24,927 nt of DNA, taken from NCBI GenBank assembly GCA_030407315.1, contig JALQPE010002465.1, forward strand, positions 1 through 24,927, read 5' to 3'. The position numbers and the translations under genes were made by a program. Numbering within the stretch: the stretch's first letter is position 1; each line of letters opens with the position of its first letter. Positions 1 to 21,300 of this stretch are shown here, piece by piece. The notes beneath the pieces are model-generated. The model did no database searches, had not been told where the DNA came from, and worked only from the letters and a program-made list of their open reading frames with translations. This DNA comes from Asparagopsis taxiformis. Taxonomy: Eukaryota > Rhodophyta > Florideophyceae > Bonnemaisoniales > Bonnemaisoniaceae.

Positions 1-27
1 TTACACTACGGTGTGAGAATGAAAAAA

Positions 28-370: not shown

Positions 371-906
371 TCTGGTGGAGTGGACTTGAGAGGAAATATG
401 GAGCATAGTGTTGGTGTGAAGGTAAATATTGGAATGGTTTGTGGTATACGACTATAGTAATTGTGATGGTGCTTTACAGATAGTTCGGTGCAGGGAAGGT
501 AGATGTTGAATAGGACGTAGAATGAAAGATTGGGAGAACAGAACATATCTGGTTTGTCTCACCGTAAGGAGAGAATGCACAGAGTAGCTATATTATGTTG
601 AGTTTAGCATTTCAAATTATACCTATCTATCTTTGAATGAAAGTGTCGAGTAGGAGACGTCAGTCTGGTAGCGAGGTGTGGTATATACAGGACGTGGGTG
701 GTGGCAAAGGAAAGAATACGCACCATCCACCACTAAATTATGAAAAATAACCGTTACGGAGCACTGGGAAGCATTATTATTATGTAGAGTAGAACAGGAT
801 GGATGCATCCACTGAAATGATATTTGCTACAACACTGCTGTGCTAAGCGTGACATCCTTCCTTCAAAGCAATTCTCCTTTTAGCAAACTCCAATTGCAAG
901 GTCAAG
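371..906. other. Leader region upstream of A1
   Basis: No convincing coding region on either strand. The one element worth marking is AACCGTTAC at 749-757, 150 bp before the A1 start and matched at almost the same distance before A2. The rest is AT-rich and unassigned. Confidence 0.5.
749..757 (+). promoter_or_regulatory. AACCGTTAC motif upstream of A1 (MYB/MSA-like)
   Basis: AACCGTTAC, the complement of GTAACGGTT, contains the TAACGG core recognised by MYB proteins (established for plant and animal MYB sites and the MSA cell-cycle element). The same 8-9 bp recurs before A2 (5819-5827), B1 (4132-4140) and B2 (9631-9639). Spacing from its end to the ATG is 150 bp for A1 and 148 bp for A2. Recurrence at four gene starts supports a regulatory role, but binding is inferred. 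Confidence 0.45.
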
Positions 907-2409: not shown

Positions 2410-2725
2410 AGGTATTCGTCGATGATTAAATCGAGAATGAAGGGGAGTAGTATCGGATGAAACCAGTTTCGGTGTAGTAGACGAAGAATGAAGAAATAAA
2501 ATTTCTGTTGAGTTGAATTTTGTAATAGATGGAAGTAGATAGATACGAGACATCAGGAAACCAGTCAGACGATAGTGTCAAGTCGAAGGAACGGCGCAGA
2601 GACAGGTAGTGGAATAGTCGAAGTAGGAAGGGGCGAGGGTATCCGTCTTTACTAGAAATTGATGGCCACAGGAGCTCTAGAATGGAATACCCAGGAACAG
2701 GATAACTACGGATAGGTGTGCTTTA
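2410..2725. other. Spacer between the convergent genes A1 and B1
   Basis: Intergenic, with no coding support. It contains AATAAA at 2495-2500, about 86 bases after the A1 stop, a candidate poly(A) signal. The matching A2-B2 spacer is about twice as long and carries two palindromic repeats that are missing here. Confidence 0.5.
2495..2500 (+). terminator. Candidate poly(A) signal AATAAA after A1
   Basis: Canonical AATAAA about 86 nt after the A1 stop. Short motif, so weak evidence alone. Confidence 0.3.
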
Positions 2726-4087: not shown

Positions 4088-4600
4088 GTTGGGATAGCCA
4101 TGGGATAGAATTGTTGTATTAGTGAAAGCCTAACCGTTACCTTCTGCTAAAGAGTAGTATATACTAGGAGGATTGGAAAGGTCGAGAAGAGATGTTTAGG
4201 TGGTGTAGAAATAGAATGGACAATTGACAAAATTGACACGTCAGTGTGGATGATGTCTGCCATGAACTGATTGCAGCATAAAATTTGATGTGAATAATCG
4301 TTCTAGAAGTGAATGTCGGATGCATACGATTGGACTACAAAGATACGCTTAGAGATGTTACGGGGCCCAATAAATTGCATGGAAAAATATTTTGAGTATT
4401 ACTTTAGTATTACATTGATTATTGAGCTAACAGTCGATGTAGTTATCTTGTAAAGGTTCGGACAGGGGTGGAAAGGAAACAGCCACCGAAGTGCTACCAC
4501 TCGCTGACACTTTGTTTTAAACAACCAACTTCTGCTTTGCGCCACCCTGGTCAAGCAGCAACCAACTACCCCTTTCTTAAAAACTCTACCTTTGTTCGCC
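4088..4600. other. Divergent B1/C1 intergenic region
   Basis: No coding support. AACCGTTAC at 4132-4140 lies 45 bp upstream of the B1 start. No TAACGG site was seen close to the C1 start, although C2 has one (TAACGGC near 10158). Confidence 0.45.
4132..4140 (+). promoter_or_regulatory. AACCGTTAC motif upstream of B1
   Basis: Same MYB/MSA-like core as at 749, 5819 and 9631. It is 45 bp upstream of the B1 start, in the opposite orientation to the gene, whereas the other three read AACCGTTAC or GACCGTTAC on the coding strand. Confidence 0.4.
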
Positions 4601-5344
4601 ATGGAAGGAACGTTCCACAATCACGGTGAAAAGCACGACGGATGGGTGTTCATAGACCCCAATCAAGTCAGCAAATTCGTATCGATTCGCGATGTTGATG
4701 CAAGTCATGTGGAAGCGCTCATGGAGAGCATTCGCAACAGCGGTTATGACACAGCTCATCCCGTGACTGGCAGGTTTCGAGAAGGCGTTCTGGAGATATT
4801 GGATGGAGCGCACCGGTGCATGGCAATTGTACGTGGAATGGAGAAGGGCGTCTTTCCTCCTGGCGTTACGATTTCTATGCGAGAAGAGTCTATCGTGGCG
4901 GACACCAACAGCAGTACTGCTGTTGTGCTGGACCGTGTGAGAGCAACGACATCCAACGACATTGCAGGCCTGCAAAGGCGCATGATGTTTGTTGAGTATC
5001 TGATGATCGCCGTTGATCTCAGAGACGAGTACTGGGTCCAAAAAGGAAAGGAAAAGTACGCTCATATTTCGTCTGTGAGGATGGCTGATGTGTTGGGCTG
5101 GATCAAATCCTGCGATCCAAGCAGCCAAATTGCTTCAAGCCTGAGTGGTAAACCGCAGTACAGCTCATGCATGTCTATCCGGCTGTGCTTCGGCCGTATC
5201 ACCGAGCAGAAGATTCGAGTTCGATTGATTTGCGTCTGTGGCAAATGTTTTGTCATGCATGGGGACTCAATGCAGACACTACTGAGTTTGAGATCAAAAA
5301 ATTTAGTAAATTTACTGCCTGAGGCAGTAAAAATCACTGCCTGA
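4601..5344 (+). pseudogene. C1: truncated, frameshifted ParB-like fragment
   Basis: This corresponds to the first ~240 residues of C2. ATG at 4601 begins MEGTFHNHGEKHDGW; the ParB/sulfiredoxin-fold motif DGAHR is at residues 68-72, and VEYLMIAVDLRDEYW matches IEYLNLTLDLRDGYW in C2. After KPQYSSCM (about 5170) homology to C2 moves to another frame (VLRPYHRAED against VLRPYSRIEE, LWQMFCHAWG against LWQLFCIVWG), so there is a frameshift. Homology then stops at about 5300, where palindrome array 2 starts. The methyltransferase and SET parts present in C2 are missing. As it stands this is a 5' remnant, not a functional C gene, although the ParB-like domain itself would be intact in a translated product. 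Confidence 0.8.
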
Positions 5345-5653
5345 ACAATGTAGTGCCTGAGGCAGTAAAATTACTATTTTAATTTTTTCAGTTCTAGTGC
5401 CGCAGGCAGTAAAATACAAAATTTCCTGGCAGTACGGTATGTAGCAGAATTCAGTACTGTACGATAGCAAATTATAGTAATTTTTGCTGGTACCACAGGG
5501 CAGTAGTGCAACGCAGTATTTTTGATGATTTTTGCAATGGAATGTACTGCCATACAGTACTGCCCTGGCAAATGACCTGGCATTAGAATCAGGCAGTAAA
5601 ATATACTGGCTCCGGCAGTGAATTGTACTGTGTACTGCCTGCAAGTACTGCCT
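5303..5653. repeat. Palindrome array 2 (GGCAGTAAA/TTTACTGCC type)
   Basis: Homologous in layout to array 1, but the half-site is GGCAGTAAA instead of GACAGTAAA. Clear parts are AGTAAATTTACTGCC from 5305, GGCAGTAAAAATCACTGCC at 5323-5341 and back-to-back half-sites ACTGCC-TGA-GGCAGT at 5314-5328. Further GGCAGT/ACTGCC half-sites continue to about 5653. The base change is present in both arms, so symmetry is kept. The array abuts the broken end of C1 and precedes A2, so it marks the module boundary. Confidence 0.8.
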
Positions 5654-5974
5654 TGATAGTAATTGGTGATTGGTATTTTCTGAGATTCAATGTTGCAATA
5701 GTTGTCCAGGATAGGGTTGTACAATGTGTTCGCATGTGAGTTCAAGTAGAGAAGAGAGGAAACTATTCTGAAGCTACTAGTAGTGAGAAGTGTAGAGGAT
5801 GCATGGTCACATGGAAATGACCGTTACAAAAAAGGTAGGAGAAAATCGGTCGTTTTCCGAGGATATGAGTAGAGTAGTTGGCATTATTTGTTACTATTGC
5901 TAGCATTCTCGTTGCAGGAAAAGCGTTTGGAGTGACACTCTGCGATTGGAACGAGAGGCGAAGTTTGACGGAAG
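5654..5974. other. Leader region upstream of A2
   Basis: Non-coding as far as can be seen. It contains GACCGTTAC at 5819-5827, 148 bp before the A2 ATG, the counterpart of the A1 site. Confidence 0.45.
5819..5827 (+). promoter_or_regulatory. GACCGTTAC motif upstream of A2
   Basis: MYB/MSA-like core, 148 bp from its end to the A2 ATG, nearly identical to the 150 bp at A1. Retained spacing in two diverged copies suggests it matters for A-gene expression; this is inference. Confidence 0.45.
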
Positions 5975-7498
5975 ATGGAATCTCAGCGTCGTGAGGAAAA
6001 TCCAAATGACTGCCTAGCAGGGATTATTCGAGAGGGATTCAGGACAGTGACTGGGGAAGTTCGTCGTATTGGGGAGAGGATGGATGAAATCGACGATGAT
6101 CGAACGTCCCAACGCCAGCAAATCGAAAAGCTGATGAGTCGCGTCGAGTTTATAGTAACGGAATTACAGGGTGTGAAAGACATCTGTGATGGTTTATTAC
6201 AGCAGAGTCAGGGCAATTCGAAGAAGGGGATGACTGACAAGGACAGGGACCGTTTGCGCATCTCGCAGTCAGCAGAACTATCGTTTTCTTACAATTTTCT
6301 GTGTGCAGTATTTGGAACTGTTGTACCTTTGCTGGTCGACAAGATTGATGCTGGGGCGACAATTTACACCAACCAAGGAATCTACGACCTCCGTGGTTGC
6401 AGGTTGCTCTCTGCAATGATGTTTGCGAAGCAGAGCAATGACAAGAGGGATGTGTTCCAATCCAACACCGGGAAGAACAACATCGAGCTTCGATTCCAAG
6501 TGGTGATGTCTCTCCTGCGGAACATTCAGAAGGAAAAGTCGGGTACAGGCCGTACAGTGGAAGGCTCGAGCTCTGGACGCGATTCGAATGCGTTCAACGT
6601 CTGGAAGGAGAACAAGTACATTCCGGACAAAATAATCGAAGAAGTTGTTTATGGTGCCACTGGCGATGGCCGAAACCAGCCTGCAGGAAGCATTGACGGA
6701 GGGGCTAGGAAGCGGAGGAAAACAGATGGAAATGGTGGACAGTTGAGCAAGCGTGAAATATCTTTGGCTGTTACGAAAGTTGCGCTGACAAAGGTGCTCG
6801 GTTTCCTGAACAAGTCTAGAGAGCAGGTGCGCCATCGATTCCTTGTCGAACTGGGGTTCGCTCTAGTCTTGGAAACGGACGCCTCTATCACTTTCGAGTT
6901 TCCAACTCACGATCTCATTCGAGATATGGATGTTATCCCCGATACCCGTGTGACCAACGGAAATCTAAGGCCTGAGGAACGGAAAGTTGTGGATGACAAG
7001 AATTCCGAGATCTTGATACAATTCATCGCTGAGCGGAAAGAGATGGTTGTCATCATTCAGTACGAAGTCGAGATATCGGGATGTGTGGCCAAAAGGATGA
7101 TTCGAAGGAGAATCAATATCCTGGAGGTAGCCCTGAACACTGCAATTGCTTTCCTTCAATGCACGAGTAGAATGGTTTTCCTGCGACGTTCCTGCAATTC
7201 ACTCAGATTTGTCTATGCAATCGCTTCCGGGATTCTAGGAATTTTCAAGGTACAATCAGGTCAGACCTTCGAAGAAAGTGTACAAGACGAGCTCAAACAA
7301 TTAGGAAAGGCGATGTTGCCGAGTGAGCGAATCTGTAAGAGGCATCTCTGCGAAGATGTACTGACAATTACTAACGAAAAATTCGATGAACAACACTTGG
7401 AACAGCGTAGTACCGCGTTTGAGGAGGATAGCGGACATGGAAATGAAGAAGATGGGAGTGAAAGCTACGTTGAAGTTTTCCTTGATGAGGAAGATTGA
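5975..7498 (+). CDS. A2: intact A-family protein, unknown function
   Basis: 507 aa from ATG 5975 to TGA. No known family was recognised. Residues ~10-80 are rich in heptad-like hydrophobics and charge (GIIREGF, RRIGERMDEID, IEKLMSRVEFIVTEL), suggesting a coiled coil and oligomerisation. A basic cluster, RKRRK at 245-249, could be a nuclear localisation signal. The C-terminal half has the segments most conserved with A1 (EVEISG, RRINILEVALN, MVFLRRS from residue 400), followed by an acidic tail (GHGNEEDGSESY...DEED). It converges on B2 and lies just downstream of palindrome array 2, so it is one candidate for an array-binding or anti-silencing accessory protein, by analogy to TnpA/VANC proteins of plant transposons. 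No sequence similarity to those proteins was seen. Intact, unlike A1. Confidence 0.85.
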   Translation: MESQRREENPNDCLAGIIREGFRTVTGEVRRIGERMDEIDDDRTSQRQQIEKLMSRVEFIVTELQGVKDICDGLLQQSQGNSKKGMTDKDRDRLRISQSAELSFSYNFLCAVFGTVVPLLVDKIDAGATIYTNQGIYDLRGCRLLSAMMFAKQSNDKRDVFQSNTGKNNIELRFQVVMSLLRNIQKEKSGTGRTVEGSSSGRDSNAFNVWKENKYIPDKIIEEVVYGATGDGRNQPAGSIDGGARKRRKTDGNGGQLSKREISLAVTKVALTKVLGFLNKSREQVRHRFLVELGFALVLETDASITFEFPTHDLIRDMDVIPDTRVTNGNLRPEERKVVDDKNSEILIQFIAERKEMVVIIQYEVEISGCVAKRMIRRRINILEVALNTAIAFLQCTSRMVFLRRSCNSLRFVYAIASGILGIFKVQSGQTFEESVQDELKQLGKAMLPSERICKRHLCEDVLTITNEKFDEQHLEQRSTAFEEDSGHGNEEDGSESYVEVFLDEED

Positions 7499-8104
7499 TA
7501 ATGGAAGCGGATAAGTAAAGTTTCATAACCTTTGAAGTAAAATAATTACGACGAGGCAGACTGAGGAGAAATAGAAACCTTTAGATATGAAACTGTCTAG
7601 GATATGAGTGGAAAAGGTGCACCCTAGCATGCTACGTACTACATGGTGTACTGGAAACAATAGCTATCGTTCTTATTTTTCAGCTCACTCTGCGACTAGA
7701 AAGCGTCATGTCTACTACGGTTAAGAGTTTTACCCTGTCATTGAGCACGCCTCTAGTAGCTTCGGGGCCTGTGCAGTCCCATCCAATGCCGTAGCTCCAC
7801 CTGGCAGAGTAGTGCGGAAAATAATACCGGGTATTATTTTGAGGAATATTTTGCCAAGTGGAGGGCAATCATTCGTACCGACTACAGGCGATCCCTGGAC
7901 GAAACCTAAGAATAATACCCGGTATTATTTTCAGGGATATTTTCCAAGTGGAGGGCAATCATTGTTACAGAATGCAGACAGTCCCTGGACGAAGGAACAG
8001 GCCAGAAAGATACGGAGCATATATCGATGGATACCATCGACTTAATCGAGGTTGGCTAATTCTGAACAGTCTTGTAGACCCATCTAGAAAAGATAGAAAA
8101 CGTT
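7499..8104. other. Spacer between the convergent genes A2 and B2
   Basis: Non-coding. The first ~300 bases hold nothing recognisable. The rest contains a pair of tandemly repeated palindromic elements at about 7818-7964; short open frames across them are by-products of the repeats. Confidence 0.5.
7818..7964. repeat. AATAATACC palindrome family, cluster a (2 copies)
   Basis: Copy 1 (7818-7840) is a perfect 23-bp palindrome AAAATAATACC-G-GGTATTATTTT. Copy 2 (7911-7929) is AATAATACC-C-GGTATTATT. Each is followed by a related segment (ATATTTTGCCAAGTGGAGGGCAATCA and its near copy), and CCCTGGACGAA is repeated too, so this is a tandem duplication with a ~91-bp period. Related clusters lie at about 13.9, 17.9 and 22.2 kb. 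The centre is G in one copy and C in the other, so the element seems to be present in both orientations. Confidence 0.8.
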
Positions 8105-9493
8105 TTACTCGGAGGCGACATCGTGTACGGTAGGATGAGGTGCATCGACAGGGGAACTATTCTGTCCAACAATAACGTCATGTCCAATTGTGTCTAGCTC
8201 GCTGCAGATGGTGTGTCCACTGAAAATGCATGCTGGGAGGTTCAAGTATGCAGTTCCCAACACAACATTCTTGAGAACGCGCTCGAAAGTTCCATATGGA
8301 CGAGGGCCTTGAACAGGTTTCCAGGTCAGTGAGAACGAGTTGGCCAGTTTGAAATTTTTGCTGTCCGGCAGCTCAAAGTTCTCCTGCATTTCTCGACTTG
8401 AGAGGAAGCGAGCTTCCAAAGGATACGAATAGCTGCAATTGACATAGTCGTATTCATCAGATTCTCGAGTAAGAACGACAGTACTACTCATGTTTTCAGA
8501 TCTCCTGTATAAAGAGGAACCAACAAGAACAGCCTTTGTAGATGGAATAGAATCTTCTGAAGCACTGTCTGCTAGAGTTCCCAAAACTCTAATGACAGAA
8601 GACCCAGAATCGTGTCGTGTTTTCTTCCACTTGAGGATAGTAGAGTTCGTGCATGTAGACATGGAAGGAGCTAAAGTATTGCAGAGGTCATAGTATGTTC
8701 CAAAGTGGATCGATAGCTCTTTATCTCTCCCAGTTGAAATTCGAACCGCCTCGACGCTCGGCAGGAAAATTGTGTTTGGGTTGTTCTTCTCTTCGCATAG
8801 CCTGGAAAGTTGTAAAAACTGTTCAAGCGAGCAATCTGCTCTTGCCGTCACATAGTCTTGCACCAAGGAGCTCACTTCCCGGCCTGTTTCAGACTTCGTG
8901 ATTTTGGAGGACAGGGGTTTGTCCAGTTTTAAGCCAACTCTCTGGAACAGGTAGTCGCACACAATGTTTCCGAAGATGGGTCCAGTAGCGCTTGATGAAC
9001 CGCGACAGTTGAGAATCTGCCTTTCGAGGTAGGATACCTTTTGAAACAGCTTGGATATGTCCTCATTGATGTTAGGACCAGGAGGACTCTCATCGCAAAC
9101 TAAGCGCGGCTCGGACTTGGATCGACTCAACATGTTTTGTTTGCAGTCTTTTTTATGGAAACTGTCTTCACCCGCAGACGAGATCGTCTGCTCTAGTGCT
9201 AGTTGCTCTCCAAACCTCCAACGTAGCATGTTTCCAGAGTCAATGTCCAGCAGCGAATTGTTCTTGAATAATTTTGCTGTAGAGACTGACTGGTCGAAAC
9301 CGTGTTCAGATTGATATTGCAGCGTAACAAACAAGTTTCCAGTCAAACGATGTTCTCCGGACGCGTCCGGCTTGGCAGTACTCAAAACTTTGGCGCCCCA
9401 CCAAACCTTTTTCTGTTTCCTTCCTCTCGTTCGTAAACTCCATTCTACTTCAATGACTGATCCTTCGGAGACAAAGTCTGTTGGGTCTTGCAT
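8105..9493 (-). CDS. B2: intact B-family protein, possible Tudor/Agenet-like N-terminus
   Basis: 462 aa from ATG 9493 to TAA. Residues ~8-100 have a pattern like Tudor/Agenet-type beta barrels: an EGSVIEVEW strand, a basic stretch (RTRGRKQKKVWW, with W31 and W32), a strand ending in LQYQSEHGF and a closing LDIDSGNMLRWR. Such domains commonly read methylated histones, so a chromatin-reader role is plausible; this rests on pattern only. A short coiled coil follows near residues 145-160 (DISKLFQKVSYLERQI). The C-terminal ~200 residues (SSVIRVLG, CIFSGHTICSELDTIG) are conserved with B1 but match no family I know. It is convergent with A2 and divergent from C2. GTAACGGTT lies upstream at 9631-9639. 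The reading frame is intact, in contrast with B1. Confidence 0.8.
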   Translation of the reverse strand: MQDPTDFVSEGSVIEVEWSLRTRGRKQKKVWWGAKVLSTAKPDASGEHRLTGNLFVTLQYQSEHGFDQSVSTAKLFKNNSLLDIDSGNMLRWRFGEQLALEQTISSAGEDSFHKKDCKQNMLSRSKSEPRLVCDESPPGPNINEDISKLFQKVSYLERQILNCRGSSSATGPIFGNIVCDYLFQRVGLKLDKPLSSKITKSETGREVSSLVQDYVTARADCSLEQFLQLSRLCEEKNNPNTIFLPSVEAVRISTGRDKELSIHFGTYYDLCNTLAPSMSTCTNSTILKWKKTRHDSGSSVIRVLGTLADSASEDSIPSTKAVLVGSSLYRRSENMSSTVVLTRESDEYDYVNCSYSYPLEARFLSSREMQENFELPDSKNFKLANSFSLTWKPVQGPRPYGTFERVLKNVVLGTAYLNLPACIFSGHTICSELDTIGHDVIVGQNSSPVDAPHPTVHDVASE

Positions 9494-10224: not shown

Positions 10225-13200
10225 ATGGCCTCTGAGAAGAGAAATCCAGCGAGCACCTCTGGGCGTCCCCTTCATGGTGAGCGGCGCAATGGGCTATTGC
10301 ACATCGACCCATTCAAGATCAAAAGATATGTCGAGATTCGAGAAATCGACTACAGGCACGTCGATGTTATTGCCGAGAGCATTCAGGTTTACGGCTACAA
10401 TGACAACAACCCAATTACCGGTCGGATCATTGCCGGTGAGGTAGAGGTGCTGGATGGTGCGCATCGTTCGAAAGCTGTAATCAAGCTCATAGAGAACGGT
10501 GAGCTTCCGCGTGATTTCACTGTTCCTATGATTGAAGAAGAAGTCGACATATCTCCGATTACAAGTGCTGCTTTCCTTCTAGATAGTGTGAAAGCATCAA
10601 ACGCGAACGATATGGCATCCAGGCAGAAGAGGATGACTTTCATTGAGTACCTGAATCTTACTTTGGATCTTAGAGATGGGTACTGGGAGCGAAACGCAGG
10701 TGAAAAACAAGGAAGCTCAAGCATGGTTACAATTCGCGACGTGAATATGCCATCCATTAGGCGATGGCTCGCCGTGGGATCTCAGCGCGAAGATTTGGCA
10801 GAAACTGTGCTGAGGCAGCCACAGTACGAGAGTTGCTTGTCAATTCTTCGTGTGCTTCGCCCCTACAGTCGCATAGAAGAACCCAATCCCAAAATGGTTC
10901 GCTGTCTGTGGCAGTTGTTCTGTATTGTATGGGGAAGGCCGGTGGAAGTTCAGAACAATTTTGCGATGAAGGAGTTTCCCACATCTCTCGAGAAAAGAGC
11001 ATCAGTCGGCGAGCAGTTGTTTGGGATGTCTACAAGTGGTGAAATTGCTTCTCCATTGTGTCGCGAAGTCCTCACCTGTGAGTATTTTCGTTCTGGAAGA
11101 AGTGCACAGGGTAGAACATTAACAGAAGAAGACAAAGTATTTGGAAGGCTGATGTTTATGATTTCATTTGTGCACATTGCCCTCACTAGACGCAGAAATG
11201 CACCCATTCGCCGGGGTAGGAAGCGTCGTAGAACTGGGAGGGATACAGAGACTTCTACATTCGCCCCTTTCCAGCGCACAAGAGCAAACGGAGAGTCTGT
11301 GGGTGTCGTTTTGGAAAGGGTCATGTCTGCCTGGGATACAACAGCGATGATTCTGGGCTTCGAAAGCGCCTACATGATGTGTCGCCCATACATGGTTTTC
11401 GACTCTGAGAAATTCCAATTCATCTGTCTTGCTAATCGTACTGACGGGTGGGCACATCCTGACCACTACTCAGATCTTCTGCTTCCGTCCCCGGTAGTGA
11501 AACTCCGCGAGAATGCAGGTTATCCAGGCACTTTGGATATCTCTGTTGATGCAAGGTTGAGGTCTTTGACAGAAGCCGTACTAGTGTCTGTGTATGACTG
11601 TATGATAGGCATTGATGTATTCGGATCAAGTACGAACCAGATGGAAGGGCTGCGCACTAAATTTTTCCATCAGCCTGACCGGTTCGGATTGAACGCCTTC
11701 ATCGAAGCAAGAATAGAACAATCCATCGCATTGGATGGTCACGAAAGACTCAAGGTATGGAAGAACTGGAACCGTGAAATGCGTGTGAAGCCAGTTGATG
11801 TCTGCGACTTGAAAATTCTCTACGAGACTGAACAGCGCAACGCAGCATCCAGATCTCTTTCTCGAGAAAGAGATCGTCTTGAGTCGAATGAATCAATGCA
11901 GCACAGCACTCGCCGTTTAGGTACAGGTGGAAGGAAACCTACCAATGACTCTGGATCCCAGTATACATCCAGCATGGATGGGAGGGCTTCGTCCGCAATG
12001 GACACGGTTATGCAAGATGTTGCGGAGGATACACCGTCAGCGGAGGCAGTGGGTGAGGAAGAGGGGGTACCGGATCATATTGTGCAATTGAAAAAGGTCA
12101 TGAAGAGATTTTGCGTGGCTTACAACTGTACAGCCTCGAGGTTAGTGCACCAGGTTAACACTGATTCCATTGGCATGCTTTCAGGGAATACTATTGATGG
12201 ACAAGCACAACTTGTGCTCACCGATCCACCCTTCAACACGCGGAGGGAGAAAGGCAAGACCAATTCAGACTATGATGACATCAATAGCGCACAAATGTTT
12301 CGTACTGGAAAGGACATTTCTCGAATGCTGCGCCCTGGAGGACATGCCCTGATATTTTCCAGTATCAAACAGTTGGTTGGGTGGGGAGAAGCTCTTCAAA
12401 ATGCAGAAAGCGGGGAACAATCCATGCGTACAGACGATGTTCCTCTCATTCTAAGCCGTCGTCCCTACGTATTCATCCAAAACCCAATGAACAAATCGTG
12501 TTCATTACACAACATTCACGAGTTTGTTGTGCACAGTTTCAAACGTGGGATGGGAGCTGCCGCGTTTGAAATGGTTGATTATTCTTTGCATAACCGTGAC
12601 CTTTCACGACATCCAGGGTACGTGAACGCAATCGACAACTGCCCAAAGCTCGGACCTGGTGAGTCATTGAACTTCGAAGACAAAAGGCTACGTGCGGAGC
12701 AGAAGCCTCTGTCCATACTTCGAGAGCTTATTTCAAGGTTTTCAAAGCCAGGAGACATTGTGGTAGATCTATTCTCCGGAACGTATTCTACTGCAATAGC
12801 TTGCATGACAATGAGAGATGGTCTGTATCGCAAGTTTATTGGATGTGAAAAAGACGCCACATGCCATGGATCAGCTCAGCCGTTGTTGCTGGATTGCTTT
12901 GTTAGGCAAGGTCGAGATGGAGTTTTTGGGGAGGCAACCAAAAATGACATATCGAGTATTCTCGCTAACAAAGAATGGAATTACTCGATAAGGAGCAATG
13001 TAGGAAGTGAAAGACTTCGACATCGAAGTGATGCGCCTGATGGATTCCCGTCGGTATCTTCACTACCACTGCATATGTTGCGATTTGTCTCCTCTGTTGC
13101 GCGGGATCAAAGCATGCTCCGAAGACTTGCCGAAGTCCCAATGAATGAATGGGGCGTAGAAGATTTAGGCAAGGTTTTCTCCGTTGACCCTGAGATGATG

Positions 13201-13734
13201 CTTGCAGTAGATGCCTCCTTTCACAACGTTATTGTTGCTGCATCGACAGTTCGAGAGGGAGGATTGGGGGTTTTTGCCGCAGAAGATTTAGAGAGGGGCT
13301 CTGTTGTTGGATGGTATAATGGGACAATTTTATACGGGAAGATTGGGGAGAATGAACCGCAACGCAGTCGCTTGTACGGACCGGACGGGTTCGGTTGTAC
13401 TGGTGAAAGATTCCAAAACTTCAACATGGAGATGGAGACCAGTGTCATCGGAGAAGAAGCACCGGTCGACAAGATATATCTTGTACCAGCGGAATACAAT
13501 GTCTGCAGCTACCTCAACGACAGTAGGACCATTGACGGAATGGAGAGAGTTGCAAATGTGCAACGCAGAAAAAATGCAGAGTTCCGAGTTCACAAAGACG
13601 TCAATCCTACTTGCGACTTCAAGTATGCAGTAGCAAAACCTGATCTCATCCTAGCGCAGGTTGTAGTAGATGTTCGAGCTGGGGAAGAGATATTCGTTGA
13701 CTATGGATCGCGCTACTGGACTGCAGAGAAGTAG
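10225..13734 (+). CDS. C2: ParB-like + beta-class DNA methyltransferase + SET domain fusion
   Basis: 1169 aa, intact, ending in TAG with AATAAA at 13779. Residues ~24-105 are a ParB/sulfiredoxin-fold domain (LLHIDPFKIKRY, then DGAHR at 77-81). Residues ~110-620 are an unassigned middle region with a basic cluster, RKRRR, around 332-336, then a Ser/Arg-rich linker. Residues ~640-890 are an amino-DNA methyltransferase: DPPF at 667-670 (motif IV), EQKP at 825-828 (normally TQKP), DLFSGT from 848 (motif I) and FIGCEKD ending at 877. Motif IV before motif I is beta-class order, known for N6-adenine or N4-cytosine methylation of DNA. Residues ~1000-1165 are a SET domain: GGLGVF at 1012-1017, CSYLNDSR at 1094-1101 in the usual NHS position and GEEIFVDYG at 1153-1161. 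ParB-N4/N6 methyltransferase fusions are known in bacteria and phages; the added SET domain is not something I know. Inferred role: targeted DNA and histone methylation. Confidence 0.9.
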   Translation: MASEKRNPASTSGRPLHGERRNGLLHIDPFKIKRYVEIREIDYRHVDVIAESIQVYGYNDNNPITGRIIAGEVEVLDGAHRSKAVIKLIENGELPRDFTVPMIEEEVDISPITSAAFLLDSVKASNANDMASRQKRMTFIEYLNLTLDLRDGYWERNAGEKQGSSSMVTIRDVNMPSIRRWLAVGSQREDLAETVLRQPQYESCLSILRVLRPYSRIEEPNPKMVRCLWQLFCIVWGRPVEVQNNFAMKEFPTSLEKRASVGEQLFGMSTSGEIASPLCREVLTCEYFRSGRSAQGRTLTEEDKVFGRLMFMISFVHIALTRRRNAPIRRGRKRRRTGRDTETSTFAPFQRTRANGESVGVVLERVMSAWDTTAMILGFESAYMMCRPYMVFDSEKFQFICLANRTDGWAHPDHYSDLLLPSPVVKLRENAGYPGTLDISVDARLRSLTEAVLVSVYDCMIGIDVFGSSTNQMEGLRTKFFHQPDRFGLNAFIEARIEQSIALDGHERLKVWKNWNREMRVKPVDVCDLKILYETEQRNAASRSLSRERDRLESNESMQHSTRRLGTGGRKPTNDSGSQYTSSMDGRASSAMDTVMQDVAEDTPSAEAVGEEEGVPDHIVQLKKVMKRFCVAYNCTASRLVHQVNTDSIGMLSGNTIDGQAQLVLTDPPFNTRREKGKTNSDYDDINSAQMFRTGKDISRMLRPGGHALIFSSIKQLVGWGEALQNAESGEQSMRTDDVPLILSRRPYVFIQNPMNKSCSLHNIHEFVVHSFKRGMGAAAFEMVDYSLHNRDLSRHPGYVNAIDNCPKLGPGESLNFEDKRLRAEQKPLSILRELISRFSKPGDIVVDLFSGTYSTAIACMTMRDGLYRKFIGCEKDATCHGSAQPLLLDCFVRQGRDGVFGEATKNDISSILANKEWNYSIRSNVGSERLRHRSDAPDGFPSVSSLPLHMLRFVSSVARDQSMLRRLAEVPMNEWGVEDLGKVFSVDPEMMLAVDASFHNVIVAASTVREGGLGVFAAEDLERGSVVGWYNGTILYGKIGENEPQRSRLYGPDGFGCTGERFQNFNMEMETSVIGEEAPVDKIYLVPAEYNVCSYLNDSRTIDGMERVANVQRRKNAEFRVHKDVNPTCDFKYAVAKPDLILAQVVVDVRAGEEIFVDYGSRYWTAEK
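11852..11875. repeat. 24-bp perfect palindrome inside C2
   Basis: GATCTCTTTCTC-GAGAAAGAGATC, perfect and with no loop, in the linker coding for RSLSRERDR. It may be an accident of Ser/Arg codons or a real site; no second copy was noticed. Confidence 0.6.
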
Positions 13735-13883: not shown

Positions 13884-14206
13884 CCAATGATAGTGCTGCA
13901 CCTGGGCTTTGCCATGCCAAAATAATACCGGGTATTATTTTGGGTGTGGCCAGCCCAAGTGCAGCTCTATCATTGGCTGTCATGAACGCAGCGGCAGCCA
14001 ATGGAATTGCTGCACCTGGGCTTTGCCATGCCAAAATAATACCGGGTATTATTTTGGGTGTGGCCAGCCCAAGTGCAGCTCTGCCATTGGCTGTCATGAA
14101 CGCAGCGGCAGCCATAATTGCTGCACCTGGCTTTTGCCATGCCAAAATAATACCCGGTATTATTTTGGCATGGCAAAGCCCAGGTGCAGCAATTCCATTG
14201 GCTGCC
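13884..14206. repeat. AATAATACC palindrome family, cluster b (3 tandem copies)
   Basis: Three copies with 27-bp perfect cores CCAAAATAATACC-(G/C)-GGTATTATTTTGG at 13917-13943, 14031-14057 and 14142-14168, spaced 114 and 111 bp apart. Outer arms carry GCTGCACCTGGGCTTTGCCATG with its complement, and CCAATGG/CCATTGG ends. The third copy is the most symmetric: 14117-14193 has 38-nt arms pairing at about 36 positions around a central C. In the first two copies the right arm reads GGGTGTGGCCAGCCCAAGTGCAG, so those arms have diverged. Confidence 0.85.
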
Positions 14207-14535
14207 AGGTTTGCATTCTCAACTATAGTTAGTATACTAAGAAGAACAATCAAGACCTTGGTTACTCGAGTGATGTGGAATTGTGGCAGTCTTGCAAAAC
14301 TGTGCCATGCATGTAGGAAAGGAAAAGAGATCAGTCTGTACGATGTAGGGTGTATAAGCTATGCGGGGTGAGAGGTAGAGGAACTCTAATAGTGCAGTAG
14401 ACTGACCGTGCTAATATTTTCAAAGTCATGAATAGGAGTAGATTTAGTTGTGGTAAAGGAAGTATACTACCGAAGCTAGCTTAGGATTGGCAGATGCTGC
14501 CTGTAGAGGGAGAGGCAAAGCAGTATTCTTGCAGA

Positions 14536-17439
14536 TTATCGCGCACTAGGTGCATCCCAGTAGTTGACTGTTTCGATAGCATCCGCCAATTCTTCTTCGT
14601 CACTTAAAAGGTAGAGATGAGAACGAACCGGAAGACCATATGTTAGGCGATTTTCCGCTGAACTACTGAATCCTTTGCCTCCATGGTAGAAGTCACCACG
14701 ACCGATGAAGAGAGAATACGGTGGCACGTAGATGTCCATAACAGGCGTCTTGTACTTCTCAGCGTCTGCACGCGTCAAACAGACGTGGCTGAAATACGCT
14801 CCACGAAGCCAGAACCCATCAGCCGCGCTTGCCATCAGAAAGTACGATCTTCCAGGTGGGAAATCGGAATCATTGATGACCACCGGTAGGTCTGTGTGCA
14901 AGTCTTGATCTGGAGCACCATCAGAGGTCAGCAAAAGACGTAAACCGGTTTTAGGAAAGGCCACAGGCTCATGGATTCCTAGGCCCAAGTACATTAGCTC
15001 GGCACAGATTGCTTTGCCGACCTCGAGAATCATCTTGTTCTTGAATTGATGTTCATCCATCTGCTCGAGATCGTCGCAAATCTTCTTCCTTGAGATAGAG
15101 AACCTTCCCAAACGAGAGGCCTGTTGCTCTGCTGTTACCTCACCCTTGTTTCGAATCTGATGCCAGGGATCATTGGAACTGTCTTCAGCAGAAGAATGAA
15201 CAGGTTTGAACTTCTGGGCGTAGAACGTGAACAGTTCATGTGCTGCGTTGCCCACAGTCGAAGAACGGAAGATACCACTGAGTACATGGGCACCCAAGAG
15301 ATTGAGAGTTGACCTAGCTGTTGCAAAGAACTTCTCTGCACAGCAAGCTGGACCACTGCACGCTATACAATTCATATCGGCAGCAGCTGCACTCAAAATC
15401 TCCTGTCGGATTGTTTCGTACAGCTTGCTGTCGATATAGTACTTGACCCTAGAGTCTGACGGTATGGTGTTCGGGAGAATATCCATAATCCGTTCATCGA
15501 CTACCCTGTCGGGGAGGGGATTTTCCTGCTCATCGCTGAACAATGGAATCTCCTCGGTTGAACGTTCACTTCCAGTCTTCTGCGCTTCGGAAGGGGCTCT
15601 TCGGACTCTTCTTCTACCTCCGACTCTGCCTGACTGTCGCCGCCAACCCGTAGACTCTCCGTTCTCTGCCGTTTCGACCTGCGAAGTGTCTCGACTGGCT
15701 CATTCACCGCAAGCGGTGGTGCATTGAGAGGGAGACGGAGGAGAACAGATCCCAATTGCTTCTCAGAACCTGCCACAGTGGCATCAGGGGTTCCTTGAGC
15801 CTGCTCAACTGCAGGAACGGAAGTGGCAGGAGCAGGAGGGGTAGCAGGAGGGGTGGAAGGGGCGGGAACGGAAGTGCAGGAGGAGGGGTAGCAGGAGCAG
15901 GAGTAGAAGGGGGTAGAAGGAGTAGAAGGAGTAGAAGGAGTAGAAGGAGTAGAAGGAGTAGAAGGAGTACAAGGGGTAGAATGAGCACGAGGAGCAGGAG
16001 GGGTAGAAGGAGCAGGAGGGGTAGAAGGGGCAGGAGGAGTAGGACCAGAACGGGTAGAAGGGGTAGAAGGCTCATCTGATTGGGGCGTAGATGGCTTCGG
16101 CGCATCTTCAGATGGCTGTTCATTGTGAACAATGACCCTTTGGTCTTCTTCCATGTCTACAACGCCCGTGGAAAAGCGAAGCTGCTCATACATTTCGTCG
16201 GAGACGAGAGCATGCTTCGTACCGCTGTTGTCGTCGGTATTGAAGTGCAGGAGGGTCTCCGCGATACTGTTCGCAATAACAGTCTCCTTTCCTGACCCAG
16301 TGTTCTTGAGCTCGGAGTAGAAATGCTCGAGCGGAGGCTCCATCATTTTGTGAGCAGCAACCGGCTCGGACATCTTGAACACTTCAATTAAAACACGAAC
16401 GAAAGGACTACCAAATCCTCTTGTCGTCCTGCTCAACTGACGCAGATCTCGCATGCGTGTCCAGAGAGCTGTTATGAGCAAGATGAACCTTTGCTGATAC
16501 TCCGAGCCGCGACGGAAGTCTGCCATGAAAACGAGATCCATGTTGCAGCCATACATGTCTACGGACTGCTTGAAGACATCGTCGTTGATGTCACGGCCTT
16601 CTTTAACGGCCCTTTCCTGTTCCGCAGCGAGAATTTCCTTGGTGAACATGCTCGGTACGGAACTCCAGAACTCAAGCGCTTTGTTGTTCACAGTCCGGAA
16701 GCCTTTCGCAGCAGTCACGTGCTTGTTGATGGCTTGGTAGCCCAGTTTCGATATCGACAACTGGCTGTCCATGATGACCTGAATGCACTTCCGATTCGGT
16801 TCACCAGCATGTCCTTGGTCGTGAGCAGTTGGACCACAGAACACACTCGGTCTGCCAAAGAAACAAGGGCAACATCATGTGTGAGTGTGTTTGCTTGAAT
16901 GGACAGCCCGAGTACTTCAAAAGGTGTGAAGTACTCATCGGAAACTTCTTCTGTCCCTGGGCGCCTGATCAAAGCCACATCGATGTTCCTGAATGAAGCA
17001 GCATACGGATGTTGCCCTTCCGGGTCTTCACGAATGCACTTCTGGAGAGCCGCAACGCGATGGCCACCATCGATGTAGAACGTTTGAAGGGTGGGGGTTG
17101 TGCTGCCTTCACTAGGAAGGAGCATTTTGCAGGCAAGGATTCGGGAGATTGAGGAGGTGAATCCTTCCCTCAAGAACTTCTCCTTCAGCTCAAGCACTCT
17201 CCCTTCCCTAATATGACGAGAGAATAGGGGGGGTCTGTGCAAATCCAAGGGAGACAGCCTGTGGTCAGCTTTGGGACAGTCTGACAACTGAACCTCGGCG
17301 GTGACAGAGTTATCGTGACCAGGGCTGCGAGAAGGGGCGCGAGAGCGAGAAGGGCGCGAGAGCGAGCGGAGGCCCGACCGCGAGTCGAAGCGCGAGCAGG
17401 GGCGGGGGCAGAGGGTTTGGAGCGAGTGCGAGGAGCCAT
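14536..17439 (-). pseudogene. ParB-like + 2-oxoglutarate oxygenase-like gene, frameshifted (copy 1)
   Basis: One gene spread over several frames, recognised by collinearity with the gene at 18347-21870. It probably starts at ATG 17439 (MAPRTRSKPSAPAPARAS, basic). It shifts near 17340 into the frame carrying the ParB-like motif DGGHR (17071-17057) and THDVALVSLADRVCSVV. It shifts again near 16800, consistent with a lost base, into the middle region (AAKGFRTVNN, ALEFWSSVP). A long Pro/Ser/Thr linker and a basic cluster, PKRRRLE, follow. A third shift near 15540 leads to the C-terminal domain (15543-14536). That domain has HTD with His at 14898-14896, RGDFYHGG with His at 14685-14683 and PVRSH, the HxD...H...R layout of Fe(II)/2-oxoglutarate oxygenases. 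Such enzymes oxidise methyl groups on nucleic acids or proteins; the substrate is unknown. Introns or assembly errors could also explain the breaks. Confidence 0.7.
15830..16075 (-). repeat. Pro/Ser/Thr-coding 9-nt microsatellite in the linker
   Basis: The plus strand reads runs of GTAGAAGGA; on the coding (minus) strand this is an (STP)n tract with variants APSTPP and PTPP. It forms a flexible linker between the middle region and the oxygenase-like domain. Such tracts expand and contract by slippage. A short odd stretch, FYSCSCYPSSCTSV, within the tract reads as STP/AP-like in a neighbouring frame, so slippage may have shifted and restored the frame locally. Confidence 0.75.
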
Positions 17440-18346
17440 TGAAGGATGAGGGAAAGCAGGAATGGAGAGAAGCTTGATTGAGTGTACGACCCCGATAACG
17501 ACGATACAGAGACGATTAAGATAGATTTATTTCGCTACTGCAGTCTGATAAAGGATCAAACGTGAACAATCCGTTTCAACTCTGATTTCAATTTTTTGTT
17601 TATTTCTAGACCACTTGACTCAGATCAAGAGTAATACTCGAAATTCAGTTAATTTCTGCGGCCAAATACAATCGCTATACGACGAGTTCATACTCAAAGT
17701 GGCTAAACAGGTACGAGTTGGTCATGGTGATTACCCCAAAACCACTCAAGTAATAACTACATAATGCTGAAGTCACATACTTCCCAGCATTTTGCACCAA
17801 CTCGTGGAGCTGATGCGTACATACCAAATGCGTCTGTATTCAACATGAACCACGAATAAGTGGGCTTCGGCCAATGAGTGCACTGCACCTGGCTTGAGAA
17901 ACTAGGAATAATACCCGGTATTATTTTGGCCTCCCAAAAGCCAGGTGCACCAACGCCATTGGCTGAGGTTTTCCGGAGTACCCCCAGGCAATGGGGTTGG
18001 TGCACTTGGTCTACACCCACCCAACTTTATACCCGGCCAGACTCCTGTTCTCAGGAACTGAAAATTTTACCGGGGATAGTGAACGATGTAATATAATACC
18101 AGGTTTTACTATCTGCTATCGTTTCTTGCATCTACTGAAGAGGTTTAGAATTTGCAGCTCCTGTAGGTAGAGCTTTCTGTGGAGAATAGCTTTCTGCATG
18201 TGGTGTTTGTTACATTTGTGAATTGATCTGACTATATAAAGAATCCATGCAGTATCTCTTTTATCATGTTCTATTGGAATTGTGTTTATTACTCTACGGA
18301 TTCATACCCAACTAAGGCTTCAACACGGCTGGACAGATGCCCTTCA
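17440..18346. other. Spacer between the two minus-strand ParB-oxygenase genes
   Basis: No coding region supported. It contains repeat cluster c (17868-17965) and a decayed half-copy near 18090-18108 (AATATAATACCAGGTTTTAC). 17440-17867 is AT-rich and unassigned. ACTATATAAAG near 18230 resembles a TATA box, but no plus-strand gene follows. Confidence 0.5.
17868..17965. repeat. AATAATACC palindrome family, cluster c (1 copy)
   Basis: The core AATAATACC-C-GGTATTATT at 17907-17925 sits between outer inverted segments: CCAATG...CTGCACCTGGCTT on the left and AAGCCAGGTGCACC...GCCATTGG on the right. Same outer plan as cluster b, with diverged sequence between core and arms. Confidence 0.8.
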
Positions 18347-21300
18347 TCACTTCAATTTCGAATTGCCCTCCCAATGTCCAACGACATATTCTCCTTCTTC
18401 ACTTTGATGCTGCTCAGTTTTGAGGAATATGTGAGATCGGATCGGGAACTTGTATTGAAGACCCTTATTGCTCTCAAATCCTTCCTCGTGGTGATAAACA
18501 TCCCCTCGGCAGACAAGAACAGAATATGGTGGTACTTCACACCTCTTCATTGGAACTCTGTATAACTCTCTGTTGGGATGGGATAAACAGACATGACTGT
18601 AGGGTGCAAGCACGAGGCCGAATCCATCTGCGCCGCTTGACATCATGAAGTAGGATGGCGGAGAAGGGGGACTGTTAACTTCATCGATTCCCACTTCATA
18701 GTCTGTATGTCCAGCACGAGGTTTAGTCCGCTCTCCAGTCAGCACTAAAGTAGTTCCAGTGCTGGGGAAGGCCATCGGGTCCTTCCCACTAGTCCTCAAT
18801 TCCAAACCTTCCGCACAAATACCTAGACCGAGCTCAACAATCATCTTCTTCCGATAGAGATTATTATTGTTATCCTCGAGGTCATCACATAAGCTCTTCC
18901 GCTTTGTTATAAAGATTCCTCTGCCCTTCTCACCTTCTTCATCAGAGTTTTTCCCATCCATCATAGCCATGCACCACGGTGTCCAGTCCGGATCTCTGCG
19001 GGTGTCACCGGATTCAGAGTTCTTCTTGGCATCCTCGAGACGTTCCTCAAACAACGCAGAAAAATGAAGGAGCAGTTCGTGGATCGCATCTGCAGTAGTA
19101 GAAGACTTGAATATTCCGTCCAGAATTGTAAACCCAACCAAGTCTATTTCATTTCGTTTCTCTCGGAAATAAGCCCTCGAGAGAAACTCAGCGGAAACAT
19201 TTTGTGCCGAATAGGCACTCGCTGCTGCTTCAGCGACCTCGGCTCGAAGCGTATCGACCAGTTTCCCATTCACATAGTATTTCATTCGACTGTCGGGATG
19301 AATGATAACAGGCAGTTTCGCTTCTATACCTTCCTCCACATCTTTGTCAGGGACATCATTTTGTTGCCTGTCCGAATACTGACCTCCTTGAACCGCGTGG
19401 ACTGCAGCGTCTTTGCCGGATTGCAAATTTGCGTCTTCACGCATCTTTTGCTTCTTCTTCTGCCGCGGCCTGCTGGTATCCTCTCCCACCAGGTCAATAA
19501 CCTCTTGAGGGGTGACATCCACCAATTTCCGTTTGGATCGTAGAATCATTGGCGGCGTCTCCGTATTCCTCGGCTTTGCCTTTAAGGGCACGAAACCACT
19601 GCTGTGCTTGGCTTTCATCAACTTCCTAGGCGTAGAACTGGTAACAGGTGTTTCCGTGTCCTCCAGCTCAGGTAAAACAGGTAGGCCGACATCCGCTGTA
19701 GATAACATAGCGTCTCCAGTGCCATCACCCTGATTTCGTACACCTTTCATCGGGTCCTCCGTTGTCCTTCCAGAAGAATGTTCGGGACATTCTTCGCGGA
19801 CATCTTTCGTTCCAGACCCATCGCTCTTCCTAGATTCAGGACCTCCTTCACCATCTCGACCAGTTCTTGGATGACCAACTGACATATTCGCCGGCGACTT
19901 TCCACCCTGCTCTGGTCTGAGCGTGGCACTTCCGGCTGCCACTGGGCTAGGTGGTTGTTGCAGGTCATTTTCATCACCGTGGTCATTTCTTCCTCGATTT
20001 GCACCAGTTGGTTCAAGCTCTTGAGTTCCTACGTTCTTCTGCAACACATCCCCAACTTCACAATCTCCAGGTTTCGAAGAATTGTTCTCGGTAGGCGCAG
20101 TAGGCACTGCGCGGTCCGTTGTAACCTGCTTTGCGCTTTCGGAATCTGCCGCTTTCCCTGTCGCCTCTTCACCAACCTGTGTTGCAGCACCGACCTCAGC
20201 GTTAACACGATCCGATATTTCCAGACTGCCCTGTGTCTGCTGTTGGGTAAGTACATTTGGACTCTGTACCACGTCCGAGCGATCAATGGCAGCATTTGAA
20301 GTATCACCATACGATGCGGATTGTTGTCGTGGTTGAGGTGCAGTATTCCCTTCCAAGGATTTTCGCCTAGTCCGCCTTTCCTGCACACCTATTTCAGGCG
20401 CGACGGAATGGTCGAGAGAGTCATCCGATAGAATTGGGCCGTTGAAAACCACATAACGGATTTCTTTCATCATAGACCGCGTCAATGCTGCACGTATACC
20501 TCTCCCAGTTGGTGCGTCGGAAGGATAGAAATCTTTGAGGACAGTCAAAATGCGATATCGTATGGTTTTTTCGTGTTCGTCCACCTGGCTCCGGTACTTC
20601 ATGTAACTTCCTGAAACATGGATGAGGTGAGGAATGCCAGGAGTTTTCTTTCCGTACAGCTTTCTCAAGTATGTCATATATTTCACACATGCTGTAGCAC
20701 CACTTTTGCGCGCATGTCTTTAGACTTATACCACCATCTCCTTTCCTACGTTTCCACATCGTCCACATTGCAGTGAGCTCTAGAATGACAAGTTTGGTGT
20801 CCACCGAAGCTTTTCGAAACGCAGAAGCGAATAGGACGTCCACAGTGCATCCCTGCATATTCTTCGAGTCTGGCGGACTAGTTTCAGTTGCAAATCGACT
20901 TGGGATAGCTGACCAATGTTCGAACGCCGGGTTATTTACGTCTCCGAAGCCCTGCGCAATCGAAACGTACTTCATCATGATTCCTTCCTGACAACCTGGA
21001 ATGACCTTGTTCTCGACTACAACTTTTGTGCACACATTTACCTTCGCCTTCATCAAGCCCTTCATCATCATGAACTTCATGACCGTACAGACGTGGTCAG
21101 CAATAGAAACTTCTATCACGTCATGAGTCTTTTCGTTCAGCTTCTGCGATATTCGCATCACTTCAAGAGGATGAAACATTTCACGGGTTCCAGGTGGTCG
21201 GATGAAGTCAACGCTAATGCTCCTCAGTCTCCATCGATCAGCAACTGTCGGTTTGTTTTCCACAATCGACTGCAAAGCGCTGATACGATGACCTCCATCA

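What the first reader, a model, noticed from the sequence alone, without database searches (positions are those of the whole stretch)
10225..13734. One protein combines a ParB-like domain, a beta-class DNA methyltransferase and a SET domain
Seen: DGAHR (77-81), DPPF (667-670), EQKP (825-828), DLFSGT (848), and SET motifs GGLGVF (1012), CSYLNDSR (1094) and GEEIFVDYG (1153), all in one uninterrupted frame. Known: ParB-N4/N6 methyltransferase fusions occur in bacteria and phages, and SET domains methylate histone lysines. Inferred: a bacterial or phage-type modification enzyme was captured by a eukaryotic element and gained a SET domain, so one polypeptide could mark DNA and nearby histones together.
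Basis: partly seen in the sequence, partly recalled or inferred. Interest (0 to 1): 0.92.

Follow-up and report, generated by a model that had tools for sequence, protein, structure and literature searches.

The report
Jumping element with double methyl-writing enzyme
A 25-kilobase jumping DNA element, present in many near-identical copies in what is probably a red alga, carries one gene whose protein joins a likely ParB-like domain, a bacterial-type DNA methyltransferase domain and a SET domain, and this protein is predicted to mark both DNA and proteins, probably to keep the element active.

Summary
In detail: one 1169-aa frame carries a beta-class N6/N4 DNA methyltransferase and a SET domain and, less firmly, a ParB-like domain. 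The gene lies in a ~24.6-kb DNA transposon: left end at window 5277, right end ~4.1 kb past the window, CACTA ends, 2-bp target duplications in 16 of 19 copies checked, subterminal repeats. The 141-Mb genome, probably a red alga, holds 259 left and 327 right ends; the 40 listed copies of the gene are ~100% identical. The element also encodes two unknown proteins, two ParB-motif/2OG-like proteins and a transposase distantly like Transposase_21. A multicopy sister family (43% identical protein) keeps all three domains. Seven of 7 aligned members match methyltransferase and SET (E<=1); 3 have the ParB box. SET genes, TET/JBP genes and enlarged red-algal CACTA elements are known from transposons; a DNA methyltransferase-SET fusion on one appeared in no listing of 10 paper searches. 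I think it writes activating marks on the element's own chromatin (anti-silencing). Activity, modified base, lysine target and targeting are untested.

The parts
5277..5294 (.). Left terminus of the transposon, CACTACTGAGTTTGAGAT
   Evidence: Similarity of 9 of 10 other copies to the window starts at 5271-5277; the tenth (C2338) shares the flank too and looks like the other haplotype
5293..5680 (.). Left subterminal array of palindromic CAGTA/TACTG repeats; the right subterminal region outside the window has the same type
5975..7498 (+). Gene A, 507 aa, function unknown (N-terminus looks coiled-coil by eye); 85 listed full-length genomic hits, 99-100% identical
7818..7929 (.). Palindromes AATAATACC(G/C)GGTATTATT between the convergent 3' ends of genes A and B
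8105..9493 (-). Gene B, 462 aa, function unknown (a Tudor-like look of its N-terminus is recalled, not tested); 92 listed genomic hits, 98-100% identical, one with a stop
10225..13734 (+). Gene C, 1169 aa: ParB-like + helical middle + beta-class DNA methyltransferase + SET
10336..10617 (+). ParB-like domain of C (residues 38-131, DGAHR box)
   Evidence: phrog_1033 E 8.6e-6; phrog_4272 (unnamed) 7.1e-8; no Pfam match
12094..12915 (+). DNA methyltransferase domain of C (residues 624-897; DPPF, EQKP, DLFSGT)
13261..13707 (+). SET domain of C (residues 1013-1161)
   Evidence: Pfam E 2.2e-5, above cut-off; profile match to KMT2D 1.3e-5
13884..14222 (.). 114-bp tandem array with the AATAATACC(G/C)GGTATTATT palindrome between the convergent ends of C and O1; length differs between transposon copies
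14539..17338 (-). Gene O1, ParB-type DGGHR motif plus HxD..H dioxygenase-like C-terminus; frame broken in this copy, 978-aa open frame in L079 (also open in L080 and L086)
17907..17925 (.). Single AATAATACCCGGTATTATT palindrome between O1 and O2
18347..21890 (-). Gene O2, paralogue of O1 (C-terminal part 38% identical); frame broken in this copy, 1184-aa open frame in L088. The upstream limit is approximate
22132..22417 (.). 104-bp tandem array with the variant palindrome CTATACCGGGTATTATTTT between O2 and the transposase gene
22700..24927 (-). 3' part of the transposase gene T, split into short frames in this copy and running off the window; 1247-aa open frame in L090 and L092. Start coordinate approximate
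4..5276 (.). Older, decayed element of the sister family into which the transposon above is apparently inserted (the far flank is not seen): left end at 4 (CACTACGGTGTGAGA), array 27-206, A-like 949-2406 (+) and B-like 4087-2729 (-) each with a stop, C-like 4592-5277 (+) with a frameshift, cut at the insertion
   Evidence: C-like part 97% identical to P0002 over its first 193 aa

Best explanation
Gene C is an accessory gene of a large, apparently recently amplified DNA transposon with CACTA ends in what is probably a red alga, and its ParB-like/DNA-methyltransferase/SET protein is predicted to write DNA and lysine methyl marks that likely keep the element's own copies expressed and mobile. Shown here: the domains in one frame; element ends, target duplications, copy number and gene content; conservation of both enzymatic domains in a sister family and in other homologues. 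Inferred: that the methyltransferase is active, probably as an N6-adenine enzyme (DPPF motif; nearest solved fold CcrM); that SET methylates a lysine, perhaps on histone H3 (its profile is nearest KMT2/SETD7); that the protein acts mainly on its own element; and that the marks favour activity rather than silencing.
For: Element: shared left end, shared right end, 2-bp duplications in 16 of 19 copies examined (10 of 10, 6 of 7, 0 of 2), 259 left and 327 right ends with 0 matches of the backward controls. Three of the copies with duplications (C718, C582, C337) hold a full-length gene A inside the element. Transposase: 36 database hits including itself; Transposase_21 matches 2 of 34 scanned (best E 0.0013) and Plavaka 1 of 34 (0.027). 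Gene C against P0002 is 53.9% identical in the methyltransferase and 56.1% in SET, but 21.9% in the linker, as expected if both enzymes are maintained; both families are multicopy with open frames. Precedent: transposon-borne SET and TET/JBP genes are read as counter-silencing (PMC12730594, Introduction read), and VANDAL elements encode anti-silencing proteins (PMC10398659, PMC5735166; listing and start of abstract only).
Against: No expression, methylation or enzyme data. Motif I reads F-x-G-[TS]-[YF] rather than FxGxG in 7 of 7, and the SET NH motif reads N-D in 6 of 7 and N-G in 1, so either site could be altered or dead. With the SET piece alone the best solved chains are KMT2D (0.0087) and EZH2 chimeras (0.014), nearly tied, and EZH2 writes a repressive mark, so the direction of the mark is open. 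ParB, the proposed targeting part, has its box in 3 of 7 members and a profile match in 2. The copies C1579, C75 and C732 show no matching 2-bp duplication (recombination, misassembly or another cause). The 15.1-kb copies (8 of 33 end pairs) lie on contigs without a listed hit to genes A, B or C, though those lists stop at the best scorers. The model's mean pLDDT is only 61.7.
Confidence: 0.47

Rival explanations
1. The protein serves transposition itself: DNA methylation times or limits cutting at the ends, as Dam does for Tn10 (recalled), and SET methylates the transposase or another element protein rather than histones.
For: Subterminal palindromic arrays differ between the two families (GGCAGTAAA..TTTACTGCC against GACAGTAAA..TTTACTGTC) and could be substrate sites. 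SET enzymes with non-histone substrates exist (recalled).
Against: Shorter copies (11.9-18.4 kb) with the same ends also carry target duplications, though C could act in trans. No direct evidence.
Confidence: 0.22
2. The marks are self-limiting or repress competing elements: the transposon encodes its own silencer to control copy number or exclude the sister family.
For: Two related families coexist, one apparently inserted into the other. In bdelloids a bacterial-type methyltransferase fused to a chromodomain is part of transposon silencing (PMC8885841, abstract and passages). The SET piece scores nearly as well with EZH2 as with KMT2D.
Against: Hundreds of ends and identical copies point to vigorous recent amplification. 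The family profile ranks KMT2C/D and SETD7 above EZH2.
Confidence: 0.18
3. Neutral passenger: a captured host gene carried along without function.
For: CACTA elements often pick up host genes (recalled).
Against: Full-length frames in two families whose proteins are 43% identical, with the enzymatic domains the best conserved parts, and homologues from other database entries with the same two domains.
Confidence: 0.06
4. Artefact: bacterial contamination or an assembly chimera.
For: A methyltransferase of prokaryotic type in a fragmented assembly; one homologue lies in a contig filed under a cyanobacterial genome (L013).
Against: 40 listed copies on many contigs, and element ends with target duplications on many contigs.
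Confidence: 0.01

Closest known systems
Enlarged En/Spm (CACTA) families of the red alga Chondrus crispus (Kojima, Bao and Jurka 2013, as cited in PMC6431247; passages seen)
   Same: Red algal host, CACTA superfamily, unusually large, several ORFs instead of 1-2
   Different: Reported as 16-20 kb with 4-5 ORFs; here ~24.6 kb with six genes. The content of the Chondrus ORFs could not be seen, so they may include a relative of C
N6_N4_Mtase gene expansion of Asparagopsis taxiformis L6 (PMC12115072; passages seen)
   Same: 66 N6_N4_Mtase genes reported in a 142-Mb red algal assembly; very probably these transposon genes, and probably this genome
   Different: Presented there among gene duplications; in the passages seen not linked to transposons, and the text has no 'SET domain'
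DNA transposons carrying SET genes (HarbingerS and MuDR of Phytophthora) or TET/JBP genes (fungi) (PMC12730594; Introduction read, other passages seen)
   Same: Transposon-borne epigenetic enzymes, read there as counter-silencing
   Different: Other superfamilies or hosts; no N6/N4 DNA methyltransferase and no fusion of a DNA and a protein methyltransferase in what I read
Bdelloid N4CMT (PMC8885841; abstract and passages seen)
   Different: Present as an allelic pair in the sequenced rotifer, with a chromodomain reader instead of a SET writer; not described as transposon-borne in the passages seen. DPPF here is the N6-adenine type (motif rule recalled)
Cell-cycle methylase CcrM and relatives
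   Different: Bacterial; the model match covers only residues 624-897 of C

Membership tests
CACTA/EnSpm-type (CMC) DNA transposon | Terminal inverted repeats beginning CACTA | tested here: met
   Left CACTACTGAGTTTGAGAT, right end read backwards and complemented CACTACTGTGTCTGAAAT; 259 and 327 genomic matches, 0 in the backward controls
CACTA/EnSpm-type (CMC) DNA transposon | Short target-site duplication (2-5 bp for the wider group according to PMC12730594) | tested here: met
   2 bp in 16 of 19 copies; the fungal EnSpm families of that paper give 3 bp
CACTA/EnSpm-type (CMC) DNA transposon | Related DDE transposase with C(2)C and H(3-4)H motifs | tested here: inconclusive
   C634 and C637 invariant in 29 of 29. 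Transposase_21 in 2 of 34 homologues (best 0.0013), Plavaka in 1 of 34 (0.027), beside 14 unrelated families in 1 member each at 0.052 or worse. The element's own transposase has no Pfam match at E<=5. Catalytic triad and H(3-4)H not assigned; fold not predicted
Beta-class N6/N4 DNA methyltransferase (PF01555) | Profile match above the curated cut-off, motif IV before motif I | tested here: met
   52 bits against 26.7; DPPF at 667, DLFSGT at 848; motif IV is DPP[FY] in 6 of 7, DSPW in P0007
Beta-class N6/N4 DNA methyltransferase (PF01555) | Motif I FxGxG (recalled) | tested here: not met
   F-x-G-[TS]-[YF] in 7 of 7. Some N4 enzymes also depart here (recalled)
Beta-class N6/N4 DNA methyltransferase (PF01555) | Catalytic activity and base (6mA or 4mC) | not testable with these tools
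   Needs methylation mapping or an enzyme assay
SET lysine methyltransferase (PF00856) | Profile match above the curated cut-off, GxG and catalytic Tyr | tested here: met
   Window protein 25.3 bits against 22.4; 7 of 7 members match at E<=1, 4 of 7 database hits in the precomputed annotation; G1013, G1015 and Y1160 invariant; matches to KMT2C/D, SETD7, SETD8, EZH2
SET lysine methyltransferase (PF00856) | NH motif (NHxCxPN, recalled) | tested here: not met
   N kept in 7 of 7, H replaced by D in 6 and G in 1
ParB-like (ParB/sulfiredoxin type) domain | Match to ParB families | tested here: inconclusive
   phrog_1033 8.6e-6 and four further ParB-like phrogs weakly for the window protein; P0002 0.003; P0003 has the DGAHR box but no ParB-like phrog. 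No Pfam match at E<=10. Helix-turn-helix not tested
2OG-Fe(II) dioxygenase (genes O1, O2) | HxD...H in a double-stranded beta-helix (recalled) | tested here: inconclusive
   HTD and RGD-x-YH conserved between O1 and O2; no Pfam match to such a family; model pLDDT 36, useless

The most novel reading that the evidence does not exclude
A eukaryotic DNA transposon carries its own epigenome kit: a single polypeptide that writes N6-methyladenine on DNA and methyl-lysine on chromatin, perhaps with ParB-type targeting, plus two possible dioxygenase erasers. It would be the first fused DNA-and-histone methyltransferase, and a self-marking system that explains the element's spread.
Probability: 0.35. 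Interest if true: 0.93.

Novelty: new variant of a known kind. Interest (0 to 1): 0.78.

Why it matters
DNA and histone methylation are normally coupled in eukaryotes through separate reader and writer proteins (recalled); here both writer domains sit in one chain, on a selfish element whose success can be counted. It would explain the N6_N4_Mtase expansion reported for Asparagopsis, offer a natural fusion for epigenome tools, and make 'do transposons write their own active chromatin?' testable in a seaweed. It also shows a eukaryotic PF01555 lineage outside bdelloids.

Tried and rejected
Assembly chimera and contamination: rejected by copy number and target duplications. Capture of a ready-made phage ParB-methyltransferase: not supported. 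Viral contigs: the single-protein scan found no relative; the alignment scan found 12 loci, matching only within residues 505-905 at 24-48% identity. Solved structures for the transposase: none. Gene O dioxygenase fold: model too poor to search. The fold search of C was filled by the methyltransferase; SET and ParB folds do not appear in the rows shown, which tests nothing about them. A 15.1-kb copy and a sister-family gene could not be fetched (below), so no dN/dS was computed. Genes A and B were not searched against the large protein database: the three searches went to C, T and O2; for O2 the only hit is itself. End pairs: one search used the 100 listed of 327 right ends and 81 of 259 left ends (those listed on contigs up to C822), and the gene A contig list was typed. 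Target duplications were read for 18 of those 33 pairs and for C1579, chosen for plausible size, not at random. Papers: 10 searches; no title or abstract start listed, and nothing in the sections and passages I read, describes a ParB/methyltransferase/SET fusion or a transposon with N6_N4_Mtase plus SET. Only lists were seen for most papers, and Repbase Reports and most subscription journals are not held, so absence there is not shown. Recalled, from no call: Dam and Tn10, variation of motif I in N4 enzymes, the DPPF/SPPY rule, SET motifs and non-histone substrates, gene capture by CACTA elements, the Tudor-like look of B. On checking, I lowered the main confidence from 0.50 to 0.47 and raised the silencing rival from 0.15 to 0.18, because one search puts EZH2 almost level with KMT2D.
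Full report

2. The family. The protein search gave 7 hits, one of them the window protein itself (P0001). Aligned with the window protein, the other six make a set of 7, and 7 of 7 match N6_N4_Mtase and SET at E<=1; the precomputed annotation lists SET for 4 of the 7 hits. The DGAHR box is in 3 of 7 (window, P0002, P0003), and a ParB-like profile matches 2 of these; the other four show no such region in the alignment. P0007 is also found, with a few differences, in a 3.5-kb contig filed under a cyanobacterial MAG (L013), probably a stray eukaryotic contig. Window protein against P0002: 41.3% identity in ParB, 53.9% in the methyltransferase, 56.1% in SET, 21.9% in the linker.

3. The genome. 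The window is contig C2339 of a 141.5-Mb assembly of 3156 contigs. Phycobilisome proteins give 13 matches, 11 on contig C469 and two elsewhere, which in a genome of this size points to a red alga. One pair of equal matches on C469 lies 177,170 bases apart, as if a circle of that length had been assembled with an overlap; a plastid genome of 176,936 bp and an assembly of 142 Mb in 3308 contigs are published for Asparagopsis taxiformis L6 (PMC12115072, passages). The host is therefore probably that species; this is not proven.

4. The element. The 40 listed genomic copies of gene C are ~100% identical and free of stops (40 of 3787 first-look candidates were scored, so more may exist). The 8 best-scoring ones, the window included, do not differ in 3507 bases. 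Genes A and B give 85 and 92 listed hits; in the contigs I compared by eye (C45, C142, C2338) the order A, B, C, the orientation and the spacing are those of the window. Comparing the left flanks of 10 copies puts the left end at 5277: 9 of 10 start there, the tenth shares the flank and looks like the other haplotype. Following two copies rightward puts the right end ~4.1 kb beyond the window; the C75 copy is 24,650 bp. The ends are CACTACTGAG... and ...CACAGTAGTG. Allowing 2 mismatches the genome holds 259 left and 327 right ends, and no match of the backward controls. A 2-bp duplication flanks 10 of 10 copies, 6 of 7 and 0 of 2: 16 of 19. Three of the 16 (C718, C582, C337) hold gene A, and two of these (C718, C337) also a listed gene C. 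Of 33 end pairs found on one contig, 8 are 15,098-15,101 bp, and none of those 8 contigs is among those with a listed gene A, B or C: a shorter class, perhaps without the A-B-C part.

5. Gene content. From left to right: A (+), B (-), C (+), O1 (-), O2 (-), T (-). O1, O2 and T are broken in the window copy but open in others: 978, 1184 and 1247 aa. T has 36 database hits including itself; 29 aligned sequences share invariant acidic, Cys and His residues. Of 34 scanned, Pfam Transposase_21 matches 2 (best 0.0013) and Plavaka 1 (0.027); 14 unrelated families match one member each, none better than 0.052. T itself has no Pfam match. With the termini and the duplications I call the element CACTA-type. 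O1 and O2 have a DGGHR box and a C-terminus with HTD and RGD-x-YH, which looks like a 2OG dioxygenase; this is a motif reading only, and the model failed (pLDDT 36).

6. Repeats. Both subterminal regions hold CAGTA/TACTG palindromes. A second palindrome, AATAATACC(G/C)GGTATTATT or a close variant, sits in the gaps between genes, in three of the four gaps in tandem arrays; the array after gene C differs in length between copies. The window has 19 separate short-spacer palindromes (arms of 8 or more) against a mean of 1.6 and a maximum of 6 in 20 block-shuffled controls; some lie inside genes.

7. The nest. The first 5.3 kb are an older element of the sister family: left end at 4, A-like and B-like genes each with a stop, and a C-like gene 97% identical to P0002 over 193 aa, then frameshifted and cut at 5277. 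The far flank is outside the window. The sister family is also multicopy (40 listed, ~100% identical). So two families have kept the same three-domain gene through recent amplification.

8. How it probably works. A mobile element is exposed to silencing. C has domains for methylating DNA and a lysine. DPPF (motif rule recalled) and the closeness to CcrM favour N6-adenine. The SET part is nearest KMT2 and SETD7 by profile, with EZH2 close behind. The simplest reading is that C, perhaps with A and B, keeps the element's chromatin active; the O proteins may remove host marks. None of these steps was tested. Both catalytic sites carry unusual residues conserved in the family (motif I F-x-G-[TS]-[YF]; N-D instead of N-H in SET), which could mean altered chemistry or loss of it. 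Rivals are that the marks regulate transposition itself, or silence competitors.

9. What is known. Large multi-ORF CACTA families were reported in Chondrus (PMC6431247, passages); SET genes on HarbingerS and MuDR, and TET/JBP genes on eleven lineages of fungal transposons (PMC12730594, Introduction and passages); a bacterial-type PF01555 enzyme with a chromodomain in bdelloids, stated there to have no eukaryotic homologues (PMC8885841, passages); 66 N6_N4_Mtase genes in Asparagopsis, given among gene duplications (PMC12115072, passages). I found no account of this fusion, or of N6_N4_Mtase on a transposon, in the ten searches listed under Tried and rejected. It is a new variant of a known kind: a CACTA-type transposon with epigenetic cargo, with a cargo protein not described in what I could search.

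Noticed in passing
window 14539-17338 and 18347-21890 (-): Two paralogous genes pair a ParB-type DGGHR box with a 2OG-dioxygenase-like C-terminus; the only database hit for the second is itself (P0047). They may be erasers to match the writer C.
   Followed up: partly
window 7818-7929, 13884-14222, 17907-17925, 22132-22417: Palindrome AATAATACC(G/C)GGTATTATT or a variant in the intergenic gaps, mostly in tandem arrays; in the C718 copy the array after gene C runs for over 3.8 kb of the stretch fetched. Possible terminator, insulator or methylation site.
   Followed up: partly
G000 contigs C212, C238, C511, C704, C753, C59, C181, C791: Eight copies with the same ends but 15.1 kb long; none of these contigs has a listed gene A, B or C hit. 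Content not read.
   Followed up: partly
window 1-5276: Decayed sister-family element, apparently the target of the younger insertion; its subterminal palindromes differ (GACAGTAAA..TTTACTGTC against GGCAGTAAA..TTTACTGCC).
   Followed up: partly
PMC12115072, figure legend: The published Asparagopsis bromoform (mbb) contig figure labels genes there as site-specific and adenine-specific DNA methyltransferase: possibly genes of such transposons beside the locus.
   Followed up: no
L013 (WTKN01000331.1): A family member (P0007) in a contig filed under a Moorena cyanobacterial MAG, probably a stray eukaryotic contig.
   Followed up: partly
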